Shown here piece after piece: positions 23,701 to 64,000 of a stretch of 64,000 nt of DNA. Numbering within the stretch: position 1 is the first letter of the stretch; each line of letters begins with the position of its first letter. The stretch comes from Liolophura sinensis (lineage: Eukaryota > Mollusca > Polyplacophora > Chitonida > Chitonidae). Location of the stretch: assembly GCF_032854445.1 (NCBI RefSeq), contig NC_088302.1, positions 37,886,191-37,950,190 of the forward strand, in the 5' to 3' direction. The notes under the pieces were generated by a model. That model worked only from the letters and a program-made list of their open reading frames with translations. It did not search any database and was not told where the DNA came from. The translations under genes were made by a program, and so were the position numbers.

Positions 23701-26700
23701 CTCCAAATATTTCTATGAAGTTGGCCTTTTTGCCGAGACCAAAGCCATCCTTATCTGGTCCTGATCGGAAGACAGGAGAGCGAAATGACTCTGAAATCAT
23801 AACAGTGAAAACGTTAGTGAACAAGTCTCTGCATAAATTAGTATTCAAATTAAGGAATTGGTCTTCTTTTAATAGGCCTTTTAATGAGCTCTTCCTGGAG
23901 ACAACAAACCCTTGACTAATGAGGTCATGCCATTCAAATTCTGCCTGTGTGGATGGGATACCTTCTCTCATGGAATGGCAACTTAGAGTCAAGCTGAACT
24001 AACCATTTTTCTCTTACAGTCTGGATGGGATACCTTCTCTCATGGAATGGCAACTTGGAGTCAAGCTGAACTGACCATTTTTCTCTTACAGTGTGGATGG
24101 GATACCTTCTCTCATGGAATGGCAACTTGGAGTCAAGCTGAACTGACCATTTTTCTCTTACAGTGTGGATGGGATACCTTCTCTCATGGAATGGCAACTT
24201 GGAGTCAAGCTGAACTGACCATTTTTCTCTAACAGTGTGGATGGGATACCTTCTCTCACAGAATGGCAACTTGGAGTCAAGCTGAACTAACCATTTTTCT
24301 CTTACAGTGTGGATGGGATACCTTCTCTCATGGAATGGCAACTTGGAGTCAAGCTGAACTAACCATTTTTCTCTTACAGTGTGGATGGGATACCTTCTCT
24401 CATGGAATGGCAACTTGGAGTCAAGCTGAACTAACCATTTTTCTCTTACAGTGTGGATGGGATACCTTCTCTCATGGAATGGCAACTTGGAGTCAAGCTG
24501 AACTAACCATTTTTCTCTTACAGTCTGGATGGGATACCTTCTCTCATGGAATGGCAACTTGGAGTCAAGCTGAACTGACCATTTTTCTCTTACAGTGTGG
24601 ATGGGATACCTTCTCTCATGGAATGGCAACTTGGAGTCAAGCTGAACTGACAATTTTTCTCTTACAGTGTGGATGGGATACCTTTCCTCATGGAATGGCC
24701 TCTTGGTGTCAAGCTGAACTGACCATTTTTCTCTTAGTGTGGATGGGATACCTTTTCTCTTGGAATGGCAACTTGGCGTCAAGCTGAACTGACCATTTTT
24801 CTCTTAGTGTGGATGGGATACCATTTTTCTCTTACAGCGCAAGAGTATCAGATTACCAGTATTAAGTTTACCCACAAAATTCATCCCAATCAAGGCAATG
24901 GAAGGAAGGAATAATACACTGCACAGCTCACAGCCCTGGCCCAAATTACTTCAGGCAGGATAATTTCCTCAATGGCTGTGAATTTACACGTGCCTCTGGA
25001 GATGACTGGAGCGTTAGAGTGGTTTCACTCTGCCTCTAGTTAGTTTCCTACACTAATCATGAAGTGTCTGAAGACGATCAGTAGTTTCACTCTGGCTGTA
25101 CATGGTATCCTACACTAATCAGGTGGTTCCAGGAGAGGTTCAGTGGTTTCACCCCATCTCGACAACTAACAACTAATGTACATGTATGTCTGAGATTAAA
25201 ACACTGTGACAACACTTTCAAGCTTACAAATCAAATCATTTTCTGCTGCAATGCTCCATAATTGTACATTACTGTATTAATTTCATCCAAAAATGGCTTA
25301 TTGGTATATTTAAAACAGAAATTTTATATCGCTATATTATATTTTGAGAGCATATTGGCAAGTTGCTCACCCAGTGTGGACCTGTTGTGCATCACCAGGT
25401 ACAGGTGATAACTGAACAGGGAGATAAGGCTTAGTCCAAACATGATGGACACAAAGAATAGGAACAAGATGTGGAACTTTCCCAAACCATCGCCGGCTCC
25501 ACCCTGAAACATACGACATGCGGAAATGAGTGATGACAGCCAGCAGTGTTCAGATCATACAAAATCAGCTAGTTGGGTTTAAGGGGTACAGTATTAGACC
25601 CTCTCCACTTCATTTCTCTATTTATTTATTTATTTGATTGGCATTTTTGCTGTACTCAAGAATATTTCACTTGTACGACGGAGGCCAGTTTTATGATGGG
25701 AGGAAACCGGGCAGAGCCAGGGCTAAAAAAAACCGACCATCCTGAGGTTGCTGGCAGTCCTTCCCACATACGTCCGGAGATAAAACCAGCTGGACTTGAT
25801 CTCCCAGCGACCACATTGGTGAGAGCCTCCTGGATTACAAACACAAACCACTAGGCCACGGAGACCCCTATTTCTCTATTTATTTATTGTTAAGGCCATG
25901 TTCATAAAATTTTTCACGGATATGATATCAATCACTTTCATTTTAGGCAGACAAAATTGGAGAGCCTGGAGTAAACCACCGACATTCATCAAGTATGTGA
26001 AAAAGCCCTCATGAATGAATGATTATGGCTTAACGCCACATCGGCAATATTTCAGCCATATCGTGGCGACCCTCATGAATTGAAGATGGTCAAAAGTGGC
26101 TGAGGCAGTCAGTGTGCCACAAATAATATAATAATGTGTACTTTTCACTGAGAAATTAACAGGTCTATGTCAGATATTCGGATGGCATGAAACTTAATCT
26201 TTTTTATGTGTTGGGGGATAATTGAAGAAAGAGCATTTAGCAACGCTCACTGGGTACCTCAGCTGTTGTGACGGGAACATTTATGTACCCTAAATGCCCT
26301 AAAAATTCGTCCATGACTAAGTTGCTCATTTTTCCAGATTCTGGGAGTTCTACTGATTTTAGAAAGGAGCTTTGAGAGACGTCTGGAAGGTAGGATGATA
26401 TTCTACTTGGAAAATGTAAATTTTAGCACCAGAAGTGTTATCTCATGACATTTATTTGCCTCCAGAAATGCTCTTTTGTGGTTGAATTTTTATGTCATAT
26501 AGGGAACATACATGTTCCTCTCATAACAGCTGAGATACCCAGTGAGAACTGTTAAATGCTCTTTTTTCAATTATTCCTTAACATTTCATAAAAAAGATTC
26601 CCAGTCAAAACTTTTGACTTCATCGTGCCAGCAAAGAGAATTCAGTTTTGTGTTAAATACCAACTTATCCGTTTAGAGGCACACAATTTATTAATTTGAT

Positions 26701-32973: not shown

Positions 32974-35900
32974 ATGTCAGCAGATACGGAAATGTTGCGT
33001 TCTTACCAGCTGAAGAATGCATATACAAATGGTAATATTTTTAATTGCGTGTTTGCTGAAGTGCTGTTGTTTGTATTGTGTTTAGATTATCGTTAAGATT
33101 ACCATATAATTATGTTACGTAGTACATGTCACTGGTTCGATCACGACAGGCAGAAAAAAGTACTAGGCTATGAAATGATCGACAAATAGTCTGTTTATCT
33201 GCAGTCTATACAGAGATATCCCCTTTGTGCTGTTGTCATCAGTTGCATGGCTAGTAACATACATATAAAGCCAAAGTGTGAAAATGAAAGTAATTACCAA
33301 TTTAAATTATGATAATTGACAAACCACTGGCTCTAAGAATGGGTGTGGCTTAATCTGCAGACTTTGCAAGAGTTTTAGCTGGGCAGACCTCTCAGTAGTT
33401 CGTGAAAATATTGTAGTTTACTAGAATTACACAACAGACAAATGCTAAACCCAGGGTTGTCTTCTAAATATTATATGAATCAGTGCTCTGCTATTGTGAA
33501 ATGTTCAGGAGTACTAATATTGCATGCTTGTGATATAGGGAAAAGGAGAATTAAAATAAGAAATATCTTTCATACATGTATAGCCTACTGATGTAATTAG
33601 TGGCATTACTTGAGTGAAGACTTTACAGCTGCAAAGTACATACTGTAAATCTTCAACCTTTTTAACCATTGAAGCACTTTTTTTCAGTGGATTTTATGAA
33701 TACAATTATCATGAATATGAGGCTAGAAGTGATTTGTTTGTGTCATTTCACATGCAAGCTTCATAAAACTCTGCAAATTATATACTCCATAGTTCTCTCA
33801 GAATATTTCAAAATATTGTTTGCAGAGGTGGTTGCAATTATAGTTTTGTGGGAAAGATTTGATGTAATGTTAATAACAGCTTGAAGTATTAAGACTCCCA
33901 ACTCATCACCCTACAAGATATGTTCCCAGTGCTCCTTGAATTAGTTTATATACATTTATGTCACATTGTTTCCCCATTCTATGTGGCACATGATGCCCTA
34001 AATGAACTGTAATTGCACGCACAAAAGTGTATTTTTAGAGGCAAATAAATGTCACAAAATGTTGTTTTTGGTGCTGAGACTTACAATTTCCGGTAGAATA
34101 TCATCCCATGTTCCAAGCAAACCTCAAAACACCTTTCTAAACTCAATAGAACTATCAGAATCAGGAAAAATGGGCAAGTTAGCCATGGATGAAATTTATG
34201 GTCATTTAGGGTAATTAAGTAATAGGTTGTGCATTACATGAATATCGTGAGTTTCACATCGCACATGATAATCCCAGCACTTTGTTTATGCTTATTCCTC
34301 TGTTAACTCCTCCATGTAGGTGTCAGGTTTGATGTCCAGGACACAGATGTGATGTTCAGAAGAGTGAAGACTCAGGTCCTGAGGTACCAGTGTGTAACGC
34401 CGATGTGAACCTCAAGGACACGCCCTCAAGGGACTGGGATCCAGATGTGTCCGCACTTATCACCTCAACAAAATGGCTTTCCACTTTTGGCCTGAAGAAA
34501 AATCGCTTAGATTTTAATAGTTTGCTCTCGACAATTGGATTTAAACACAGTGATGGTAAGACATGTGGGTAATGATGCTAATGTTTGAACTAAAGTGTCA
34601 AATTTGTAAACTGGTCTACAGTTATACCTGATGGAACTTTGAAGTGCTTATATTTATGTGTTCTGTGTGGGTAATGTTGTTGAATGTTTCAAGTGAACTC
34701 TCAAATTTGTCAACTGCTCTGTATTTGTACTGTATGGAACTTTGAATTGCTTACATTTACATGTACCATACACAGTTTTCATTGCACAATCCTGCTAGGT
34801 TTAAATTTTTCAGTTTTGGAACTTGCTGTTTCAATGTTGATAGAGTTTAGTTATTGTATGTAAACATGTAGTTTATGTCATGGCTACAGACTGTTTTTGT
34901 TTGTACATGTGTTATTATATGTACTACAGTGTAGTTGTGTTATCGGCTGAATATTTCTACTAGTAGTTGCGGAAAATCACTATCATCCATGATTTGAGGA
35001 GCATAATAAATATTGTGGTTGCATTTATGCAATTAAAGCGCGACTAAGATACTTGTTTAGCTGTTATTTGACATGGAACTCATTCACGGACTACGAATTT
35101 GAACTTTGATATTGAATTCATGCCTGGAATATTCATTGTCTGCCTGGCATCATTGAAAACTGATGACCGCTTCTCTCTTGTGTGTTACCGGCTTTATTTC
35201 TTATTTGTATAATTTCTTACATACCTTTGTCATTGGGAGTTAGTGTTAAACGTTGTTGTGGAAATGGATCTTGCAATTATCAACTTGGAACACCCTTTAC
35301 GGACTACGAATGGTATAGGAATGTCGGACTTGACGCTTATATTTAATACCATGAAAACAATGTTTTTGCCATTCAGTGTTTAGGCTTTCTGCTTATTATA
35401 AAGCTTATTCTTATTTTCACTGTATAATGATTATTGATATTAATTATGCTTTGAAATGTTTTGTCTATTGCAGATTTTGATGGGGTCTTGAAGAGACCAG
35501 TTTCTTCTCGATATGCCAATACCCTCTCAATCGCATCTTCAGACCTGATGGAAAAACATTTAATGTAAGGCAGGACACATTTTATGTAGTATGATGTAAC
35601 TGCAACAGCTAAAAATTATCTGCATGCTTCAGACGATAACTTAACTTTGCAAAATAGATAAATACCAATACATTTATATAAAAACCTGTTTTGTGTGACC
35701 ATGCAGTTCAGTGGAAGAAAATGCTTGAAATATTACACATGTTACAAAATTATAGTGGAAGATTTCATTCCTTAATAAGCAGTAAACATGATACCTGCAG
35801 GAATACCTTTCTCAGGTGACATTACTCCTTTGGTTTTCTTCATCAGCACAAGCAAGGCTAAGTTTTCCCTAAAGTCATTTCAGTGACATTACTGTACCAG

Positions 35901-47900: not shown

Positions 47901-50900
47901 TTGTCGGAATCCATGGCCATCATGGCATGGTGTTCCCAAAAATCAGAGTGCATGCTAAAAACAAGGAAATTCAAACAAATAAAGGAAGGTCTATACTGGT
48001 TTATATGATTTCTGCTTCATTCTTTGTTTTCTAAAAATGCATGTCAATTAATTAATGCTAACTTGTTGTTTAATCTGTTATTTGACACATGTGTATGTAG
48101 ATTTATAAAAATGGATATGAAATATCAAAAGTATCATGTTTTATAGGAACAGGACAATTGGTCAACTGAGGAAATCTTGCACAGTGTCTGGAAGTGAGTT
48201 TGCTCATGAGCGTTTGTCTGCACGTCCCAGAAGTGCCCCTCCCAGGGAAAGCCGGATAAGCCCCACCCCTCCTAGAGGAAGCCAGCTGAGCCCCACCTCT
48301 CCCAGAGAGAGCCAGCTAAGTCCTGCACCTCCCAGCAGATCCTCCTCTGCCCTGGGCACGTATCAGCAGCCATCCCCCTCACAGAGCCCCCGTATGTACT
48401 CTGTCAAATTCTCACGCAGACCACCCACTGCCAGTAAGTGTTTTACTCACCCTGTGCACCAAGGGGAGACCATTCACTAGTGTTAGTCTTGGTAGTGCAG
48501 TGCCAAAGAACTGATAGTTCTGATCTTGGTTTACAATGGCATTTACATGGAATTAGAAATGTGTTTCTTGTTTATGTAGGGTTTGCAGAGGATGTCATCA
48601 CCCTAGCTAAACAAGATGTTGTCAGCATTGTTGGAGTTTTTTTAAGATGGTTTAGTATAGCATCATGTTGGTAATATGGCTTTCAAAAAGTAGGTCATAC
48701 AGTGCCTCAGCATCTTTTCAAACTCTTCATAGCGACGTCACCTGTTTCGTTATGATATGACTTCCCCACATTTTCAGTGATTTGTATTCATTCACATGTC
48801 ACGGCCCTGCCGTCCCACATTGTTATTTATTTGTTTTCATTACATGTATTCACATTATTTCACTAGGGCCTTCTCACTCTTTTATTCACTTGTATTCATT
48901 ATAGGTACTTGTATTCAAATTATTTCATTATGGCATCCCCACCTTAGTATTCACCTGTACTGTATTCATTTATTATTTATTATGACCTCCCCAGAGTTGA
49001 GTCAGTCAACAAGCAGACGCCCAAACAAAGCAGGTATTCACCATCACTGGCACAGACCTGCACGTTGTACCTGTTTTTCATTTAACAGTGTCAAAATGAT
49101 AAGAGCTGTCAAGCGCTTATTTTTTGTACTGTGAAACTGTTTGTGTGAGCACAGTCACAAATTGACAATCTTGTTACTGATCAATGTGAATGTATTGGTA
49201 TTTCCAGCACATTGCTAACTTTCCAGTGAATGTGATTAATTTTGTGTCTGCTATTCATCATTTCATATTATAAGATTGTTTGTTCATTGTGTTATGCTGT
49301 ATATAGCAGGATTCATTGTTTATTCATTAGTATACCCCCTCAGCGAAGTCAGGGTGGGGTATGCTAGAATCACCTTGTCAATAGACGTAATTTTGTCCAT
49401 ACATTTCCTCCCAAACTACTGCGCTGATTTTTATGAAATTTACCATACATTTTGCCTATCATCTGAACGTGTGCATACTAAAGTTTAATAGCATTCGGTT
49501 AACTATTTGTCCATACATCTCCTTTTCAAACTGCTGCGCTAGTTTTTTATGATATTTACCATACATCCTGATAATCATCTTAACTTGAGCATGTTATAAG
49601 TTTAATGGCAATCAGGTAATTATTTTCATAATTACTTCAATTTAGGACTTTGTGTAATAATGCTTTTCCATATATTCAGATTTTGTTTATGCAAGTTTTG
49701 CTTAAGTATTGAACCTGTTTGTGTGAAACTTAGCGTCCATCTCCCCTATCATCTAAACGTGTGCATGCTTAAGTTTAACTACAGCTGGGTTATTATTTTC
49801 ATAATTATTCCCATTCAGTTACCTAATGCAGTAATGGATTTTCATGTACACTGTATTCTCTTCTGATTGCTACATTCCTCAATTCAAACTGGATGAACCA
49901 GTACTGCAGTCAAATGCAGATTTTAATTAACTGGGGAGATAAGGATACTCAAATGATCAACTTTTATGTCATATCAGACGTGGTGTTTCCATTGTAATTG
50001 TTGAATTGGATGACCATGTACTGATATGGCATATTGGAGTTTTTTTATGATCAAACTCTTGACATGATACAGACATGATCATGTATTCGTATCTTCTTTA
50101 ACTTAACTAAAACACTGCACACATACATGCAACATTATGGTTAACCCTTAAATACTGTTGTATATTTAGTATATAGAAATGGATCTCCTAAAAAGTTAAG
50201 TAACTGACCAACTTTTATGCGCTACTCAGTATGGGTAAACAGTATTTGAAGAGTAATTTTCTTAATGACCTCCTGTGGTCTGATTTGGTAAACCTGACAT
50301 TGTCTCCTACAAGACAACATATTGTGAGGACATATATCACGGTAGGAAATATGATGGACACAGCCATGTACAAGCTTTTTAAAAAGGGCGAGCTCTAGAA
50401 TTTTTCAAGCTTTTCATGGTGAACTGATTGATTGACACAAGAAAATATAGGAACATGATTGTTCACCTTTAAGACATCACAAATGAGAATGTGTGACAAA
50501 TGGACTGGTAAAATATGACAGTGTTCATGAATTCTGGTACTTGAATGTTTATGGTGTGTATGGTGTGTAGAGTTCATGTGTCCTTATTCATGCTCTGTAA
50601 ATCTTCAACCTTTTCAACCTCTAAAGCACATTTTTTAAGTGGAATTTATGCATGCAATTTTTGTCAGAATGATGCCAAAATTATTTGTTTGTGTCATAGT
50701 GGATGCAAGCTTTATGTAGCTGTGTAAACTATTTCTGCGCAATCCATAGTTCTCACAGAATGTTTGAAAAAATGTTGGTAACAGAGGATGAAAAGGTTGA
50801 AGAATTAGGGTGCTAATGTCTGAATGGTGCTAACATCAGTTAGATGTTCCTTTTACACACTTGTGCAGCATTTTTTTACAGTCTGTGTATTCCTGTTTTG

Positions 50901-59900: not shown

Positions 59901-61287
59901 CAGTTTGGGCTGAGATGGTATGCTGCTGTCTGACATAAGATGTGATGTTGTCGTTGAATATTACATGACTTCTAAATCAACTGATTTTACATCTGTGGTG
60001 GTCCGTACATGATACAGACCTGTCCCACAACACTGTGAAAATGGCCCTTCAGCAACATGTAAATAAATTGTTGGGTAAATGATCTCAAAATGATGTCTTA
60101 TGCAGTAGTTCATGGAGTGAATGGGTAAAGGCTACATTACAGCAGTGCAGTATGATAGCAACATGTTTGATTGGATAAAATTTTTAAGATGGCTGCCTCG
60201 ATTCACACTAGCCAGCTTTGCAGTGTAGTCATTTTTTTCTACATGTTTTTCGGTGAAATCTCATTAAAATAATAAAGTATCACAGGAACAAAGCTTGAGT
60301 ATCCGGTTTACGATTGAAATATGTTTTAGCCAGGTGCTGTCTTGTAAGTAGAATTTTTGGATAAAGTTAAGGAAATGTATATGAATCTTGATATACTACA
60401 GTATTGTTTGGTTACATTAACATGCACTTGTGATAGTTCTTTTATTAGCACATCATACAGTCGTGCACTGTATTTGTGTGGTTAAAGCAGTTATGTGTAA
60501 TGATTGTTTTCGATAGGAATGGTGATAAAGCGTGATGGGTACAGACGAGCTGTGGTAGAGTTTGACAACATGTCTGAAGAGACGGTACTCTTGCGACACA
60601 TCATCCCTACATCAGGGGCTTTACCATGTCCCATTCTTAGGGTAAGGCACAGTGAATGTTCAAAAGATAAGTTGTTGGGATTTTTCACCAAATTATCATC
60701 CAGGTGGACTAAATTGGTGAAAATCCATGTGAAGTTATATGTGATTTGTGGTAAATGCAGGGTAGGGGGATTACTAGTAATTGGTGAAATATTCATGAAA
60801 TTATAGCTGATTTTGTACTGGCATTTTGCTGTTCACTCTAAACTGAAATTCAAGTTTCCTGTAGCATTGTCTACCATCTGGGACTGACATAACATATATT
60901 TAATTTTGTATTATTGTATTAGTCCCAGGTACTTGAGGCTCCCTTCCCTAATGTGCTGGCCACATAATCAGTACAGATAATACCTCAAAATGTTATGGAT
61001 TATGAAATATTAATAAATGTATATATTTTTTTATTATTTTTTTTTTATAAACTATAGTTAAGTGTTTATGTTCAAGATCTGTTTACCTGTAGCAAGAAAT
61101 CACAGTGTCTTCACATCCGTCATAAAGCTATACCTCAATCTTGCAGATAGGGGACTACGTACTAGTCCGTGTTGTTAACACTGAGACTGAGGATGAAGTG
61201 TACATCCCCGGGATAGTACAAGTCACCCCACGCCGGATAGCCGACAGTGCAAAGTTCTACACCATCCTAACCTACAACAATCAAAGG
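32974..61287 (+). CDS. VWA3B: von Willebrand factor A domain-containing protein 3B orthologue (3' end beyond window)
   Basis: Cytoplasmic protein of a family associated with ciliated cells; molecular role poorly known. Exons: 32974-33031, 34340-34555, 35474-35564, 36364-36651, 37203-37362, 37840-37908, 38840-38946, 39515-39750, 41637-41833, 42464-42618, 44703-44841, 45657-45887, 46351-46533, 47154-47284, 48147-48433, 48995-49033, 51217-51351, 53794-53848, 54668-54833, 55270-55391, 56587-56637, 57179-57575, 58626-58755, 60517-60641 and 61147-61287. All junction phases agree and give 1303 codons without a stop; human VWA3B is about 1294 aa. Motifs: three W-L-x(3-4)-GL-x(3)-L modules, a degenerate and an intact VWA fold (ILIDTSSSM MIDAS), VLDKHV-like PILDKHV, GQKVIAR and a C-terminal DUF4537-type (Tudor-like) region GDYVLVRV. 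Start is uncertain: ATG 32974 is the first in-frame ATG of the open segment of exon 1; a further 5' exon is possible. Confidence 0.92.
33643..33850. repeat. MITE-like dispersed repeat (family A, copy 1)
   Basis: It starts tgtaaatcttcaaccttttt; blocks ttttcagtggattttatgaa, tttgtttgtgtcat and agttctctcagaat match 50594-50809 and, in reverse, 59100-59286. VWA3B intron 1. Confidence 0.6.
34000..34220. repeat. Copy of the 26.2-kb MITE family, inverted orientation
   Basis: The reverse complement of 26260-26490 aligns with this segment: ggcaaataaatgtcacaaaa, ggtagaatatcatccc, cctttctaaa, tagaactatcagaatc. The terminal repeats are eroded. Confidence 0.6.
34340..39750 (+). CDS. VWA3B: VWA3B N-terminal module: W-L-GL motif and first, degenerate VWA
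   Basis: Seven exons. The segment LITSTKWLSTFGLKKNRL with IGFKHSD opens the module. CPVIVIDIRNMS occupies the VWA beta-1/MIDAS position, but the DxSxS triad is not kept (DIRNM), so metal binding is doubtful. HVISYNCTDSDTIRYLKDLS, GGKFHAYA and PPGAGVRDDVLLIFEELE follow, as in vertebrate VWA3B. Exon 36364-36651 uses acceptor tttctctctcag; the upstream ORF from 36320 is intron. Exon 39515 begins after the pyrimidine-poor site gaaaaag, chosen because it completes the AAG codon. Confidence 0.85.
38151..38815 (+). mobile_element. Composite SINE with long 3' extension (copy 2)
   Basis: Plus-oriented near-copy of 31607-32307. The head is cccgtggctcagttggtcag (A-box-like) with gtgagttcaagcccagctca (B-box-like), then body, tail and the same extension through tacagacactctgtacatgt and atcttatgtag. 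It lacks the final tail of copy 1. Its right end lies ~25 bp before the acceptor of VWA3B exon 38840-38946. Confidence 0.88.
39296..39425. repeat. MITE-like element of the GGGCCCAC-end family (diverged)
   Basis: The ends ctggggactcttttcacaaa and aaaagttttgtgacaatggc are imperfect inverses and resemble the ends of 7047-7195. Confidence 0.45.
40453..40482 (+). CDS. VWA3B: Candidate VWA3B micro-exon (30 nt, unconfirmed)
   Basis: It lies between acceptor ataaatag and strong donor gtaagt, phase 1 on both sides, and would insert EKSHVEFLPR (last codon split). It fits the reading frame between exons 39515-39750 and 41637-41833 but has no motif support. Confidence 0.3.
41637..46533 (+). CDS. VWA3B: VWA3B second module with intact VWA domain
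   Basis: Five exons. AAWLKTYGLGAQKLGLFDIL with VFKHQDGVV repeats the opening motif of the first module. IDWLSQGSRELFG leads into the VWA fold: YILIDTSSSM is a complete MIDAS DxSxS, GSTNT (exon 45657-45887) supplies the metal-binding threonine region, and YLLTDGRPDQ the T/D-G loop. IPIHTISFNCND and RGRFHYFN end the fold. This is the best-conserved part of the gene and the firmest basis for the call. Confidence 0.92.
42952..43218 (+). mobile_element. tRNA-type SINE with 13-bp target-site duplication
   Basis: Complete element: head gcttgcctagtggttag, B-box-like gagttcaagtccag, body ccaccataatgctggtcgcc and a TAAATAAATAGA tail. Flanked by tactattataaat at 42939-42951 and 43219-43231. It lies in a VWA3B intron. 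Confidence 0.87.
44415..44520 (-). mobile_element. SINE body fragment
   Basis: ttggccagcatgtggtggga, gagcagagcccggggaaaac and ccacgatcatctgcaggttg match the SINE body in minus orientation. A smaller piece, cgaccagcattatggtggga, is at 44900-44922. Confidence 0.65.
47154..53848 (+). CDS. VWA3B: VWA3B central linker: coiled coil, Ser/Pro-rich and basic segments
   Basis: Exon 47154-47284 is a probable coiled coil (EDIRMLKEEYSEGLKNLEKV). Exon 48147-48433 is low-complexity and Ser/Pro/Arg-rich with repeated SP motifs (SPTPPRGSQLSPTSPRESQL), likely disordered. Exons 48995-49033 (39 nt) and 51217-51351 (TRTSLLRTLSSSGRF) follow. Exon 53794-53848 is strongly basic (KKRKKRQRKKN). Small exons are assigned from splice signals and phase, so their boundaries are less certain than those of the folded parts. 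Confidence 0.75.
47540..47720 (+). repeat. Dispersed repeat family D, copy 1
   Basis: ttctgattgattcatcca, a central gap, then tgaaagtgcttttttatata and ccaaactttaggtg; the same ordered blocks occur at 51481-51645. No coding capacity. Confidence 0.5.
49320..49620. repeat. Probable dispersed repeat beginning with a short palindrome
   Basis: ataccccctcagcgaagtca followed by gggtggggtat forms an imperfect hairpin; downstream two copies of a ~130-bp block begin tgtccatacat and contain ctgcgct, tttaccatacat and aagtttaat. Confidence 0.45.
50594..50809. repeat. MITE-like dispersed repeat (family A, copy 2) with terminal inverted repeats
   Basis: Ends tgtaaatcttcaaccttttc and gaaaaggttgaagaattagg are inverse complements with few mismatches. 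The core matches 33643-33850. Confidence 0.7.
51481..51645 (+). repeat. Dispersed repeat family D, copy 2
   Basis: Shares ttctgattgattcatcca and ttgaaagtgcatttttacac, ccaaactgtaggtg with 47540-47720. Confidence 0.5.
53517..53724. repeat. MITE-like dispersed repeat (family B, copy 3)
   Basis: The core tttgcaaggtgtttattcaa, tgtagactgataaaat, ctgtctccataaatcaaatt and the right end cataaggttgaggaattag match the copies at 10.3 and 18.8 kb. Confidence 0.6.
53990..54290. repeat. 52-bp tandem repeat, ~6 copies
   Basis: The unit contains acatgatgaacatacatgtg and gataatgtaactactaatac; repeats begin at 54027, 54079, 54131, 54183 and 54235, with partial copies at both ends. It is intronic (VWA3B). Confidence 0.9.
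54415..54526 (+). mobile_element. SINE fragment with internal deletion
   Basis: ccggccgtacgtgggaaggt and tgccagcaacctgcag are followed directly by tataagtgaaatattcttga, the tail and (AAAT)n. About 80 bp of body are missing compared with full copies. Confidence 0.75.
54668..61287 (+). CDS. VWA3B: VWA3B third module and DUF4537-type C-terminal region
   Basis: VKQWLGKHGLTAKKLTMLDA is a third copy of the opening motif, followed by YVPILDKHVLAKVF and LAHVSGRDTKQIQLISPTG, closely as in vertebrate VWA3B; no VWA follows. Exon 57179-57575 has LKELNWPVTSKDIALLE, then an acidic/Lys-rich disordered run (DDADDKDYKDEDKK). Exons 58626-58755 (GQKVIARKEADGHYYPG), 60517-60641 (ALPCPILR) and 61147-61287 (IGDYVLVRVVNTETEDEVYI) form the Tudor-like DUF4537-type region. 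The last codon, AGG, sits directly at donor gtaagc; the next exon is outside the window. Confidence 0.9.
55430..55686 (+). mobile_element. tRNA-type SINE with 12-bp target-site duplication
   Basis: Head ggggtctccgtagtcaaggt, B-box-like gagttcaagtccagctca, body and tail. Flanks are tatttgcctgga (55418-55429) and tatttacctgga (55687-55698), one mismatch. Confidence 0.87.
55896..56300. repeat. 102-bp tandem repeat, 4 copies
   Basis: The unit begins gtccccagatgtcatgaaat and includes the palindromic-looking ctgtcatgacatgtttatgt. 102 = 34 codons, so one frame stays open for 101 codons (VMKSALPVMTCLCC period), but there is no splice or homology support for coding. Confidence 0.92.
57901..58232 (-). 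mobile_element. Second SINE-like family, full length, 12-bp target-site duplication
   Basis: The (GAGT)n tail is at the left, followed by ggtttaacgtcgtactcaac, aatttttcagtcatatgacg and a ~250-bp body ending ctaccggtcccg. Flanked by tgctgaatcaaa at 57889-57900 and 58233-58244. This layout is common in molluscan genomes (from memory); it has no ORF. Confidence 0.8.
58921..59052 (-). mobile_element. Truncated SINE (tail and body only)
   Basis: (ATTT)n, aattggtgctttacggcgta, gtcaagaatatttcagttat, accagcattatggtgggagg, ending near gcgaccatccgtagg; the tRNA-like head is missing. Confidence 0.78.
59100..59286. repeat. MITE-like dispersed repeat (family A, copy 3, inverted)
   Basis: The reverse complement reads tggtaagtcttcgacctttt, tcagtggaatttatgcatac, cttgtgtcac and cagttctctcagaatgtttc, matching 33643-33850 and 50594-50809. 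Confidence 0.6.
59335..59560. mobile_element. Two SINE tails in opposite orientation
   Basis: 59335-59430 is a minus-oriented tail/body (attggtgttttatgccatac to gtgggaggaaactgg); 59508-59560 is a plus-oriented tail (ttcttgagtacggtgtaaaa and (AAAT)n). Together they form an imperfect fold-back with ~75 bp between. Confidence 0.65.
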
Positions 61288-63610
61288 GTAAGCATGTACA
61301 AGCCCCCCGCGCCAGATAGCCAACAGTGCAAAGTTCTACACCATTCTAACTTACAACAATCAAAGGGTAAGCATGTACAAGTCACCCCACGCCAGATAGC
61401 CGACAGTGCAAAGTTTTAGCACCATCCTAACCTACAACAATCAAAGGGTAAGCATGTACAAGTCCCCCATGCCAGATAGCCAACAGTGCAAAGTTCTACA
61501 CCATTCCAACCAACAACAGTCAAAGGGTAAGCATGTACAAGTCCCCCATGCCAGATAGCCAACAGTGCAAAGTTCTACACCATCTTAACCAACAACAATC
61601 AAAGGGTAAGCATGTACAAGTCCCCCCACGCCAGATAGCCAACAGTGCAAAGTTCTACACCATCCTAACCTACAACAATCAAAGGGTAAGCATGTACAAG
61701 TCCCCCATGCCAGATAGCCAACAGTGCAAAGTTCTACACCATCTAACCTACAACAATCAAAGGGTAAGCATGTACAAGTCCCCCCATGCCAGATAGCCAA
61801 CAGTGCAAAGTTCTACACCGTTCTAACCAACAACAATCAAAGGGTAAGCATGTACAAGTCACCCCATGCCTGATAGCCAGTTGTACAACCATTGTAACCA
61901 AGAACGATCAAACGGTAAGCATGGACAAGTCCCCCCACACCAGATAGCCAACAGTGCAATGTTCTACACCATCCTAACCAACAACAATCAAAGGGTAAAC
62001 ATGGACAAGTCCCTCCAGGCCAGATAGCCGACAGTGCAAAGTTCTACACCATCCTAACCAACAACAATTAAAGGGTAAACATGGACAAGTCCCTCCACGC
62101 CATATAGCCAACAGTGCAAAGTTCTACACCATCCTAACCCAACAACAATCAAAGGGTAAGCATGGACAAGCCCCTCCAGGACAGATAGCCCGACAGTGCA
62201 AAGTTCTACAACCATCTTAACCAACAACAATCAAAGGGTAAGCATGTACAAGTCCCCCCCACGCCAGATAGCCGACAGTGCAAGACTCTACAACCATCCT
62301 AACCAACAACAATCAAAGGGGTAAGCATGTACATGTCCCCCCACGCCAGATAGCCGACAGTGCAAAGTTCTACAACCATTTTAATTTACAATAATCAAAG
62401 GGTAAGCATGTACAAGTCACCCCACGCCAGATAGCCAACAGTGCAAAGTTGTACACCATTCTAACTTACGACAATCAAAGGGTAAGCATGTACAAGTCAC
62501 CCCATGCCAGATAGCCAACAGTGCAAAGTTCTACACCATTCTAGTTTATAACAATCAAAGAGTAAGCATGTACAAGTCCCCCACGCCAGATAGCCGACAG
62601 TGCAAAGTTCTACGCCATTCTAACCAACAACAATCAAAGAGTAAGCATGTACAAGTCCCCCACGCCAGATAGCCGACAGTGCAAAGTTCTACACCATTCT
62701 AATTTATAACAATCAAACGGTAAGCATGTACAAGTCCCCCACGCCAGATAGCCAACAGTGCAAAGTTCTACACCATCCTAACCAACGACAATCAAAGGGT
62801 AAGCATGTACAAGTCCCCCCACGCCAGATAGCCGACAGTGCAAAGTTCTACACCATCCTAACCAACAACAATCAAAGACTAAGCATGTACAAGTCCCCCC
62901 ACTCCAGATAGCCAACAGTGCAAAGTTCTACACCATTCTAACCTACGACAATCAAAGACTAAGCATGTACAAGTCCCCCCACTCCAGATAGCCAACAGTG
63001 CAAAGTTCTACACCATCCTAACTTACAACAATCAAAGACTAAGCATGTACAAGTCCCCCCACGCCAGATAGCCAACAGTGCAAAGTTCTACACCATTCTA
63101 ACCAACAACAGTGAAAGGGTAAGCATGTACAAGTCCCCCCACGCCAGATAGCCAACAGTGCAAAGTTCTACACCATTCTAACCAACAACAGTGAAAGGGT
63201 AAGCATGTACAAGTCCCCCCGCGCCAGATAGCCGACAGTGCAAAGTTCTACACCATTCTAACCTACAACAATCAAAGGGTAAGCATGTACAAGTCCCCCC
63301 ACGCCAGATAGCCAACAGTGCAAAGTTCTACACCATTCTAACCAACAACAATCAAAGAGTAAGCATGTATAAGTCACCCCATGCCAGATAGCCGACAGTG
63401 CAAAGTTGTACACCATTCTAACCTACAACAATCAAAGAGTAAGCATGTACAAGTCACCCCACGCCAGATAGCCAACAGTGCAAAGTTCTACACCATTCTA
63501 ATCTACAACAATCAAAGAGTAAGCATGTACAAGTCACCCCACGCCAGATAGCCAACAGTGCAAAGTTGTACACCATTCTAACCTACAACAATCTAAGAGT
63601 AAGCATGTGG
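61215..63610 (+). repeat. ~80-bp tandem satellite derived from exon end plus splice donor, ~30 copies
   Basis: The unit reads gtacaagtcccccc, acgccagatagccaacagtg, caaagttctacaccattcta, acctacaacaatcaaagg, gtaagcat. The first unit is coding sequence of exon 61147-61287 followed by that exon's donor. The motif (g/c)taa(g/a)catg recurs about 30 times; spacing is exactly 80 bp in the right half (63120, 63200, 63280 and so on) and 77-84 bp in the left half. Most copies keep GTAAGCATG; three around 62880-63040 have CTAAGCATG. Confidence 0.95.
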
Positions 63611-64000
63611 TTGACATCATTCCACAAAATCAGTTTTTATTGAGGTAAAAATGTAAGAGAGGAAAGTAAGTTATTTATGAACAGATCTGTTACAGTTTTA
63701 GCTTAGGTGTTTTTAAGCAAAGAAATAAAGTGGAAGAAATAATGGTACAAAGTTTTTAAGTTCAATATTTTTCTTATGTTATTAAGTATTGAAGGATGAT
63801 TTTCAGTTTCACTTGAGCAAATCATGATACAAAGTTTTAAAATTTAATGTTTTCGTTAGGCTACCCTAATTTCTGAACTGTTTCGCATATGAAAAAGCAA
63901 CTTTCAGTGCAGTTTATGAACATTTTTAATTTGAGTTTGGAGACCAAACTGCATTAATTGTATTGGCCAGTTTCTTCACAAAAAGTATTATTTTATCAGT

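What the first reader, a model, noticed from the sequence alone, without database searches (positions are those of the whole stretch)
61147..63610. A satellite built from an exon's 3' end and its splice donor
Seen: the last ~72 nt of VWA3B exon 61147-61287 plus the first ~8 nt of its intron are tandemly copied about 30 times into the intron. Nearly every copy retains AGG/GTAAGC, so the intron begins with a ladder of ~30 near-identical 5' splice sites, each preceded by the exon sequence (and any exonic enhancers) of the real one. Using a later donor would add multiples of ~80 nt, shifting the frame unless three units are added. Near the right end three successive copies have lost GT (CTAAGC). 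This is an unusual way for an intron to acquire repeats and could make splicing of this exon noisy or copy-number dependent.
Basis: seen in the sequence. Interest (0 to 1): 0.85.

Follow-up and report, generated by a model that had tools for sequence, protein, structure and literature searches.

The report
Exon-tail satellite with repeated splice donors
In a chiton gene the last 72 letters of an exon and its splice signal were copied in tandem about thirty times into the neighbouring intron, and the same kind of exon-tail repeat turns up at other genes of this genome, so it looks like a recurrent way in which this animal's introns acquire repeats.

Summary
In detail: 30 units of about 80 nt (61216-63606); the first is the last 72 nt of a DUF4537 (VWA3B) exon plus 8 nt of intron. 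GT is kept in 27 of 30, the exact AGG|GTAAGC in 16 of 30. No other match was found in the 609-Mb assembly (chiton Liolophura japonica), so it grew in place. Two corrections. (1) It is not a one-off: the next gene has a second exon-tail array (21 units), and 7 of 16 donor-motif arrays sampled on contig C1 begin at a homology-supported exon end (raptor, BTAF1-like, prominin, fucosidase and others). This anatomy was published in 2026 as 'exon stuttering' on chicken dot chromosomes; here it is in a mollusc, on large contigs. (2) The array may fill its whole intron: directly behind the last unit lies an in-frame ORF (HVVDIIPQNQFLLR) resembling the missing last strand of the domain, so units may also supply the acceptor; the evidence is weak and no RNA was at hand. 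Only the first donor keeps the native frame; later donors meet a stop whatever number of units is added. Likeliest role: a tolerated, neutrally decaying passenger.

The parts
61147..61287 (+). source exon, 141 nt, phase 0-0, ends ...KFYTILTYNNQR; later part of a DUF4537 domain
   Evidence: PF15057 1.5e-6 for the exon alone, 5.8e-25 joined with preceding exons
61216..63606 (+). tandem array, 30 units of about 80 nt (1 in the exon + 29 copies)
   Evidence: TRF; unit split
61288..61295 (+). intronic part of unit 1, GTAAGCAT; the exon's own donor
   Evidence: sequence
62807..63046 (+). units 21-23, donor lost (CTAAGC)
61417..61419 (+). first stop when the exon frame is read on into the array; lies in every product that uses donors 3-29
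63527..63606 (+). last unit; holds a CTAAC branch-point-like sequence and the candidate acceptors CTAAG|AG (63597/63598) and TAAG|CAT (63603/63604)
   Evidence: inferred signals, not tested with RNA
63598..63644 (+). candidate next exon (SK)HVVDIIPQNQFLLR (from 63598 or 63604), donor AG|GTAAAA at 63645; in frame with the source exon and, via TTTAG|A at 64199 (outside the window, in L001), with QAKPQYQSESVKELTSLLKAQKLEFDWTTTD*
   Evidence: [IL]PxxxF pattern shared with two other DUF4537-like C-ends of this genome

Best explanation
A minisatellite born in place: a segment spanning the exon-intron border (72 nt exon + 8 nt intron) was duplicated in tandem, with GT at both break points as possible microhomology, and then grew and contracted by unequal exchange or slippage to 29 extra copies. 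Because the exon itself stays intact and the exon-proximal donor is first in line, the copies are tolerated and decay neutrally as intron. The same process recurs at other exon 3' ends in this chiton genome and equals the 'exon stuttering' described in chicken. Shown: the array, its composition, no match elsewhere in the searches made, the neutral pattern, recurrence at other exons. Inferred: the duplication route, use of the first donor, harmlessness. Use of another donor would end the protein early, but the native stop is only 45-47 codons behind this exon, so the loss would be short.
For: No match elsewhere: 20 of 20 DNA matches and 27 of 27 pattern matches lie in C8:37947406-37949798 (the tool warns that its DNA search skips very common words and that some stretches read N). 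Unit 1 is exon, later units carry the same border. Adjacent copies are more alike than in shuffled order (0.906 against 0.886, 0 of 2000 shuffles): local growth. No sign of coding constraint among the 29 copies: 18/13/16 distinct variants at codon positions 1/2/3 (chi-square p 0.67); 13 of 29 differ in length from 80 nt; 14 of 29 are not open and in frame as a cassette; the unit's three CpGs are decayed in copies (CpA 28 of 29, CpA 19 of 29, TpG 7 of 29). Recurrence: second array in the next gene, 13 nt of exon + 66 nt of intron, 21 units, 96%; 7 of 16 donor-motif arrays on C1 0.3-5.5 Mb start at an exon end with homology support: Ank_2 1.9e-9, raptor 1.7e-14 over 33 of 33 residues, Mot1 (BTAF1-like) 3.8e-11, DUF3535 6.6e-6, Prominin 1.6e-9, alpha-L-fucosidase 1.9e-11, Fe_hyd_lg_C 2.7e-13. 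Control arrays with the reversed motif: 0 of 14 with a Pfam hit (10 ORFs from 9 arrays scanned). Published precedent: PMC12954441 (passages and part 2 of section 7).
Against: No RNA, reads or relatives were reachable, so splicing, polymorphism and age are untested. Likeness does not simply fall with distance: mean identity is 0.905 at separation 1, 0.872 at 8, but 0.918 at 25, so both ends resemble each other. The donor octamer is among the least variable stretches (2 variants in 8 columns, 5 of 73 windows as low; 5 of 232 minority cells against 130 of 2071 in the exon part, naive Fisher p 0.008), which could hint at retention of donors, though shared ancestry inflates this. The C1 sample is richer in donor arrays than average (100 of 2573 matches in 0.9% of the genome) and was selected by the donor motif, so it shows recurrence, not frequency. 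Of the six Pfam hits among the exon ends three lie below the family's curated cut-off (L011, L012, L019; L011 and L019 have PDB hits, L012 has none).
Confidence: 0.8

Rival explanations
1. The array is the whole intron. The next coding block starts directly behind the last unit, so both the donor and the acceptor (and branch point) come from copies of the exon tail. Either an exon that was once continuous was split by tandem duplication (intron gain of the Rogers type), or an older intron lost its unique part, perhaps by a deletion at a shared AGCATGT, leaving AG|CATGTGG as acceptor. This adds to the best explanation rather than excluding it.
For: ORF 63604-63644 (or 63598-63644) is in frame with the phase-0 exon end and ends on AG|GT in the phase needed by TTTAG|A at 64199, giving ...NNQR(SK)HVVDIIPQNQFLLRQAKPQYQ...DWTTTD*. 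Two other DUF4537-like C-ends of this genome read VYYLPPEKF (Pfam positions 61-120, 38.7 bits) and VWIPMQVF (positions 83-115, 19.0 bits, below the cut-off of 27; the exon before it is over the cut-off). DIIPQNQF shares the [IL]PxxxF pattern; [ILV]PxxxF occurs in 288 of 20000 random open 19-codon stretches. CTAAC or CTAAT in 24 of 30 units, AAAG in 28 of 30, TAAG in 28 of 30.
Against: Pfam scores do not discriminate: 88.1 bits without any continuation, 89.6 with SKH..., 89.1 with H..., 90.5 when the exon is joined straight to AKPQYQ. A BLOSUM comparison with known last strands was not significant (5263 of 20000 random stretches as good as the SKH form). The pattern was noticed after the fact. 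The acceptor is TAAG with a poor pyrimidine tract, while ACAG|GCC (exon from 64203) would also keep the frame with the strand left out. The loop would be about 3 residues short. In the second array of the next gene about 550 bp of unique intron remain.
Confidence: 0.6
2. The donor ladder works: keeping some 27 near-identical donors changes splicing (copy-number-dependent use of later donors gives early stops and lowers or shortens VWA3B protein, or holds U1), so donors are kept by selection.
For: 27 of 30 GT kept; donor octamer among the least variable stretches; none of the 28 other donor positions spliced to unit 30 keeps the native end (three of the 28 lack GT).
Against: Other stretches of the unit are equally invariant; three copies lost GT, six have A at -1; the same ladders stand in unrelated genes, as expected of a mutational process.
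Confidence: 0.12
3. Cassette-exon nursery: TAAG|CAT + unit to donor is mostly a 75-nt in-frame reading (HVQVTPRQIANSAKFYTILTYNNQR), so units could be spliced in as 25-residue repeats.
For: 15 of 29 copies give an open in-frame reading (14 of 75 nt, one of 66); for 11 of 22 testable units a two-intron product stays in frame to the end of the protein.
Against: About half are broken, no codon-position bias among variants; inserting a repeated strand pair would disturb the domain.
Confidence: 0.04
4. Assembly artefact or a satellite inserted from elsewhere.
For: Tandem arrays are a known weak point of assemblies.
Against: No copies found elsewhere; units carry individual differences; HiFi reads average 8.3 kb at 14x against a 2.4-kb array (PMC11068029 passages).
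Confidence: 0.03

Closest known systems
Exon stuttering / sequence stuttering on chicken dot chromosomes (PMC12954441, 2026; passages and part 2 of section 7 seen)
   Same: A lateral part of an exon with the adjacent donor or acceptor copied in imperfect tandem through the neighbouring intron; source within 1 base of the exon border in more than 90%; exon parts 20-187 bp (median 36), 1-44 copies (median 4); exon itself intact.
   Different: Mollusc, large contigs (C8 58 Mb, C1 96 Mb); some units hold only 3-13 nt of exon, below that screen's shortest hit; here the array may fill the intron. Length polymorphism between individuals not testable here.
[quoted passage not shown] ATP2A1, Hellsten 2011; fission-yeast SPOG_01682 with an intron across four 24-bp duplicates; potato RdRp), as told in PMC4974935 (abstract and introduction read; the works it cites not seen)
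   Same: Tandem copies of exon sequence supply splice signals of an intron; the yeast case also has several copies.
   Different: Here 30 units of 80 nt and a donor that may have been genuine already; intron gain is not shown.
Ordinary intronic minisatellite
   Same: Period 80, local, neutrally decaying, adjacent copies alike.
   Different: Its first unit is coding sequence and 27 of 30 units carry a donor GT.

Membership tests
exon stuttering (PMC12954441) | part of a coding exon including its splice site repeated in the adjacent intron | tested here: met
exon stuttering (PMC12954441) | strictly local origin | tested here: met
   no match at another locus, (within the limits of those searches)
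exon stuttering (PMC12954441) | copied segment reaches the exon border | tested here: met
   unit spans 61287/61288
exon stuttering (PMC12954441) | location on avian dot microchromosomes (association in that paper: 190 of 236 introns) | tested here: not met
   contig C8 is 58,388,612 bases and C1 96,433,062; a mollusc
exon stuttering (PMC12954441) | length polymorphism among individuals | not testable with these tools
   one assembly only
intron gain by tandem duplication | orthologues lack an intron at this site | not testable with these tools
   no relatives held
intron gain by tandem duplication | donor and acceptor both supplied by duplicated exon sequence | tested here: inconclusive
   frame and position allow it, Pfam does not decide
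intron gain by tandem duplication | new intron is spliced out | not testable with these tools
   no RNA data

The most novel reading that the evidence does not exclude
In this chiton, exon-tail expansion is a genome-wide mutational process touching perhaps a hundred or more genes, and at VWA3B it has gone to completion: an intron made of nothing but tandem copies of its own upstream exon's tail, most units carrying donor, branch point and acceptor. Introns of this lineage would then be built and rebuilt by satellite expansion across exon borders.
Probability: 0.4. Interest if true: 0.78.

Novelty: new variant of a known kind. Interest (0 to 1): 0.62.

Why it matters
[quoted passage not shown] The same anatomy in a mollusc, on large contigs, at conserved genes such as raptor, means that the explanation cannot rest on dot chromosomes alone. 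It gives natural series of near-identical donors behind one exon, a ready test of how the spliceosome picks among equal 5' splice sites, and a testable route from satellite to intron.

Tried and rejected
Insertion of a dispersed satellite: rejected. A first pattern with wrong spacing gave one unrelated match. The 'three units keep the frame' rule: rejected. Known RNA family in the window at gathering threshold: 0 matches. Solved structure of the domain: one chance hit at E 1.1 for the exon, 0 for the joined domain at E up to 1. Pfam to decide what follows NNQR: inconclusive. BLOSUM test of the last strand: not significant.

Acceptor-side mirror: TTTTCAG x3 gives 1060+765 matches against 494+319 for the reversed pattern. 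Of 16 sampled places (the whole printed list) 0 showed an exon start with a Pfam hit; 10 ORFs from 9 of the 16 were scanned, other open frames were not. Three of the 16 (L027, L030, L032) are not clear arrays and in L028 the array runs to the end of what I fetched. TTTTCAG is also a far less specific splice mark than AGGTRAGT, so I claim no donor/acceptor asymmetry.

The donor pattern's 1268+1305 against 618+643 counts overlapping matches within arrays. Its control is not clean: control array L045 has a unit with CAGAG|GTGAGTGG and L047 one with CGGTGAGTA. In control L037 the array fills the 2 kb fetched, so its start was not seen; 4 further control arrays had no open frame of 22 codons to scan.

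In the donor sample I chose by eye one reading frame for 10 of the 16 arrays and scanned those; frames at L015 and L017 and second frames elsewhere were not scanned. Candidates L005, L010, L016 look like exon ends but had no database hit and are not among the 7 of 16.

One search used coordinates of the next exon that were one base off; one search replaces that part.
Full report
Observation. The array is as described: 30 units, 61216-63606, period 80. Unit 1 is the last 72 nt of a 141-nt exon (61147-61287) plus GTAAGCAT. GT is kept in 27 of 30 units, GTAAGC in 25 of 30, the exact AGGGTAAGC in 16 of 30; units 21-23 read CTAAGC.

Organism. The genome has 609,464,459 bases in 632 contigs and its contig C1 has 96,433,062 bases. 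The mitochondrial gene order ND3-ND2-COX1-COX2-ATP6 (the gene names are my reading of the proteins) suggested a mollusc. The published Liolophura japonica assembly has 632 scaffolds, the longest of 96,433,062 bases, and a total of 609,495,693 (PMC11068029, passages). The total differs by 31 kb; the rest agrees exactly. HiFi reads average 8.3 kb at 14x, against an array of 2.4 kb.

Origin in place. A 160-nt query and a 24-nt pattern with up to 2 mismatches match only this locus (20 of 20 and 27 of 27 matches; the tool warns of skipped common words and of withheld stretches). Adjacent copies are more alike than copies in shuffled order (0 of 2000 shuffles), although identity does not fall steadily with distance: 0.905 at separation 1, 0.872 at 8, 0.918 at 25. 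The junction between units reads GCAT|GTACAAG, where the exon has ATA|GTACAAG and the right flank GCAT|GTGGTTG, so GT is shared at both break points (sequence); microhomology-driven duplication is inferred.

Decay. Distinct variants among the 29 copies fall 18/13/16 on codon positions 1/2/3. The unit's three CpGs are decayed in copies: one is CpA in 28 of 29 copies while the exon keeps CGG. The copies behave as intron. At four of nine exon-tail arrays examined the exon copy has a base found in none of the copies read (VWA3B; L001, L012, L020; none in L006, L007, L011, L018, L019; of the C1 arrays only the fetched part was read).

Splicing arithmetic. With the acceptor in unit 30, only donor 1 of 29 gives the native end; the exon frame read on into the array meets a stop at 61417, so donors 3-29 fail whatever number of units is added, and donor 2 ends early too. 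The native stop is itself only 45-47 codons behind the exon, so wrong splicing would cost a short tail unless the mRNA is degraded (inference).

What follows the array. Directly behind the last unit, 63607-63644 reads VVDIIPQNQFLLR in one frame and ends on AG|GTAAAA. With the last unit's own CTAAG|AG or TAAG|CAT as acceptor, and TTTAG|A at 64199 as the next one, exon, mini-exon and final exon join in frame to a stop codon. Two other DUF4537-like C-ends of this genome carry YYLPPEKF and VWIPMQVF (the second scores below the family's cut-off), and DIIPQNQF fits that pattern; random open stretches show [ILV]PxxxF in 288 of 20000 cases. Against this, Pfam gains nothing from it (88.1, 89.6, 89.1, 90.5 bits for no continuation, SKH, H, and direct joining to AKPQYQ), a plain alignment test was not significant, and ACAG|GCC at 64203 would keep the frame without it. 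I hold it likely, at about 0.6, that the array is the whole intron; whether by intron gain or by loss of an older intron's unique part I cannot say.

Not a one-off. Self-comparison of the window plus 9.9 kb downstream showed a second array, C8:37956275-37957918: 21 units of 79 nt, 96% alike, made of the last 13 nt of an exon (...GLYEEG) and 66 nt of intron, with G at +1 in 19 and T at +2 in 20 of the 20 copies. Genome-wide, three AGGTRAGT within the set spacing occur 1268+1305 times against 618+643 for the reversed pattern. The 100 listed places form 16 arrays on C1 (0.3-5.5 Mb); the 100 listed places of the reversed motif form 14 arrays spread over 0.55-33.5 Mb of C1. I fetched the 5' side of all 16 donor arrays. 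In 7 of 16 the first unit lies at the end of an open frame with homology to a known protein: L006 ankyrin, L007 raptor (33 of 33 residues, to the last codon), L011 Mot1 (BTAF1-like), L012 DUF3535, L018 prominin, L019 alpha-L-fucosidase, L020 Fe-hydrogenase-like. L011 and L012 lie 7 kb apart on one strand and may be two introns of one BTAF1 gene (gene name recalled; L012's hit is 26.1 bits against a cut-off of 26.2, and its PDB search gave nothing). Three more look like exon ends without database support; in the other six I recognised none, and two open frames there were not scanned. The reversed-motif control gave 0 of 14 with a Pfam hit (10 ORFs from 9 arrays); the donor set by Pfam alone gives 6 of 16 at E up to 0.01, three of them over the curated cut-off. 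These numbers show recurrence. They do not give a rate: the sample was chosen by the donor motif, and in a genome rich in minisatellites some arrays must fall across exon ends by chance. If the sample were typical, 2573 matches at about 6 per array and 7 of 16 would mean on the order of 180 such arrays; C1's first 5.5 Mb is richer than average, so this is a rough guess.

Comparison with what is known. PMC12954441 (passages and part 2 of section 7) describes this anatomy in 115 chicken genes and 236 introns, 190 of them on dot chromosomes, and names it exon stuttering. A library search for 'sequence stuttering' or 'exon stuttering' found that paper only. Searches for intron, tandem repeat, minisatellite, exon duplication and mollusc terms listed 3 and 6 papers; of these I opened only PMC12954441, and no other title names such a case, so I saw no report from a mollusc in a limited library. 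Intron gain by tandem duplication, including a yeast intron across four 24-bp duplicates, is told in PMC4974935 (abstract and introduction).

Verdict. A real, in-place, neutrally decaying exon-tail satellite; the known phenomenon of exon stuttering in a new phylum and chromosomal setting, recurrent in this genome, with a plausible but unproven extreme form at VWA3B where the satellite is the entire intron.

Noticed in passing
L001 6176-7819 (C8:37956275-37957918), outside the window: Second exon-tail array, 79 bp x 21, at the donor AAG|GTGAGTG of the neighbouring Tudor/DUF4537 gene; about 550 bp of unique intron follow before the next exon.
   Followed up: yes
23947-24822: 72-bp x 12 array (96%) inside an intron of a minus-strand gene that looks like a ZDHHC palmitoyltransferase (name recalled, no database search); on the minus strand most units hold CACACT|GTAAGAG, but no source exon was seen.
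   Followed up: partly
34564-34759: Two 103-bp copies that begin about ten bases behind a likely donor (GATG|GTAAGA), perhaps an early exon-adjacent duplication.
   Followed up: no
48236-48335: 30-bp repeat x 3.3 inside an open frame (SPTPPRGSQLSPTSPRESQLSPAPPSRS), a likely coding minisatellite.
   Followed up: no
G000 contig C99 (and C632): COX1 matches seven times at about 15.5-kb spacing on C99 and once on C632: probably a concatenated mitochondrial genome in the assembly.
   Followed up: no
L003 from about 939: A tandem array of about 78 nt lies between two DUF4537-like exons of a gene on C1 (seen in translation); no exon source seen.
   Followed up: no
L045 (C1:10447320-10449320): An array found with the control motif has units with CAGAG|GTGAGTGG behind an open frame; perhaps another exon-tail array, without Pfam hit.
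   Followed up: partly
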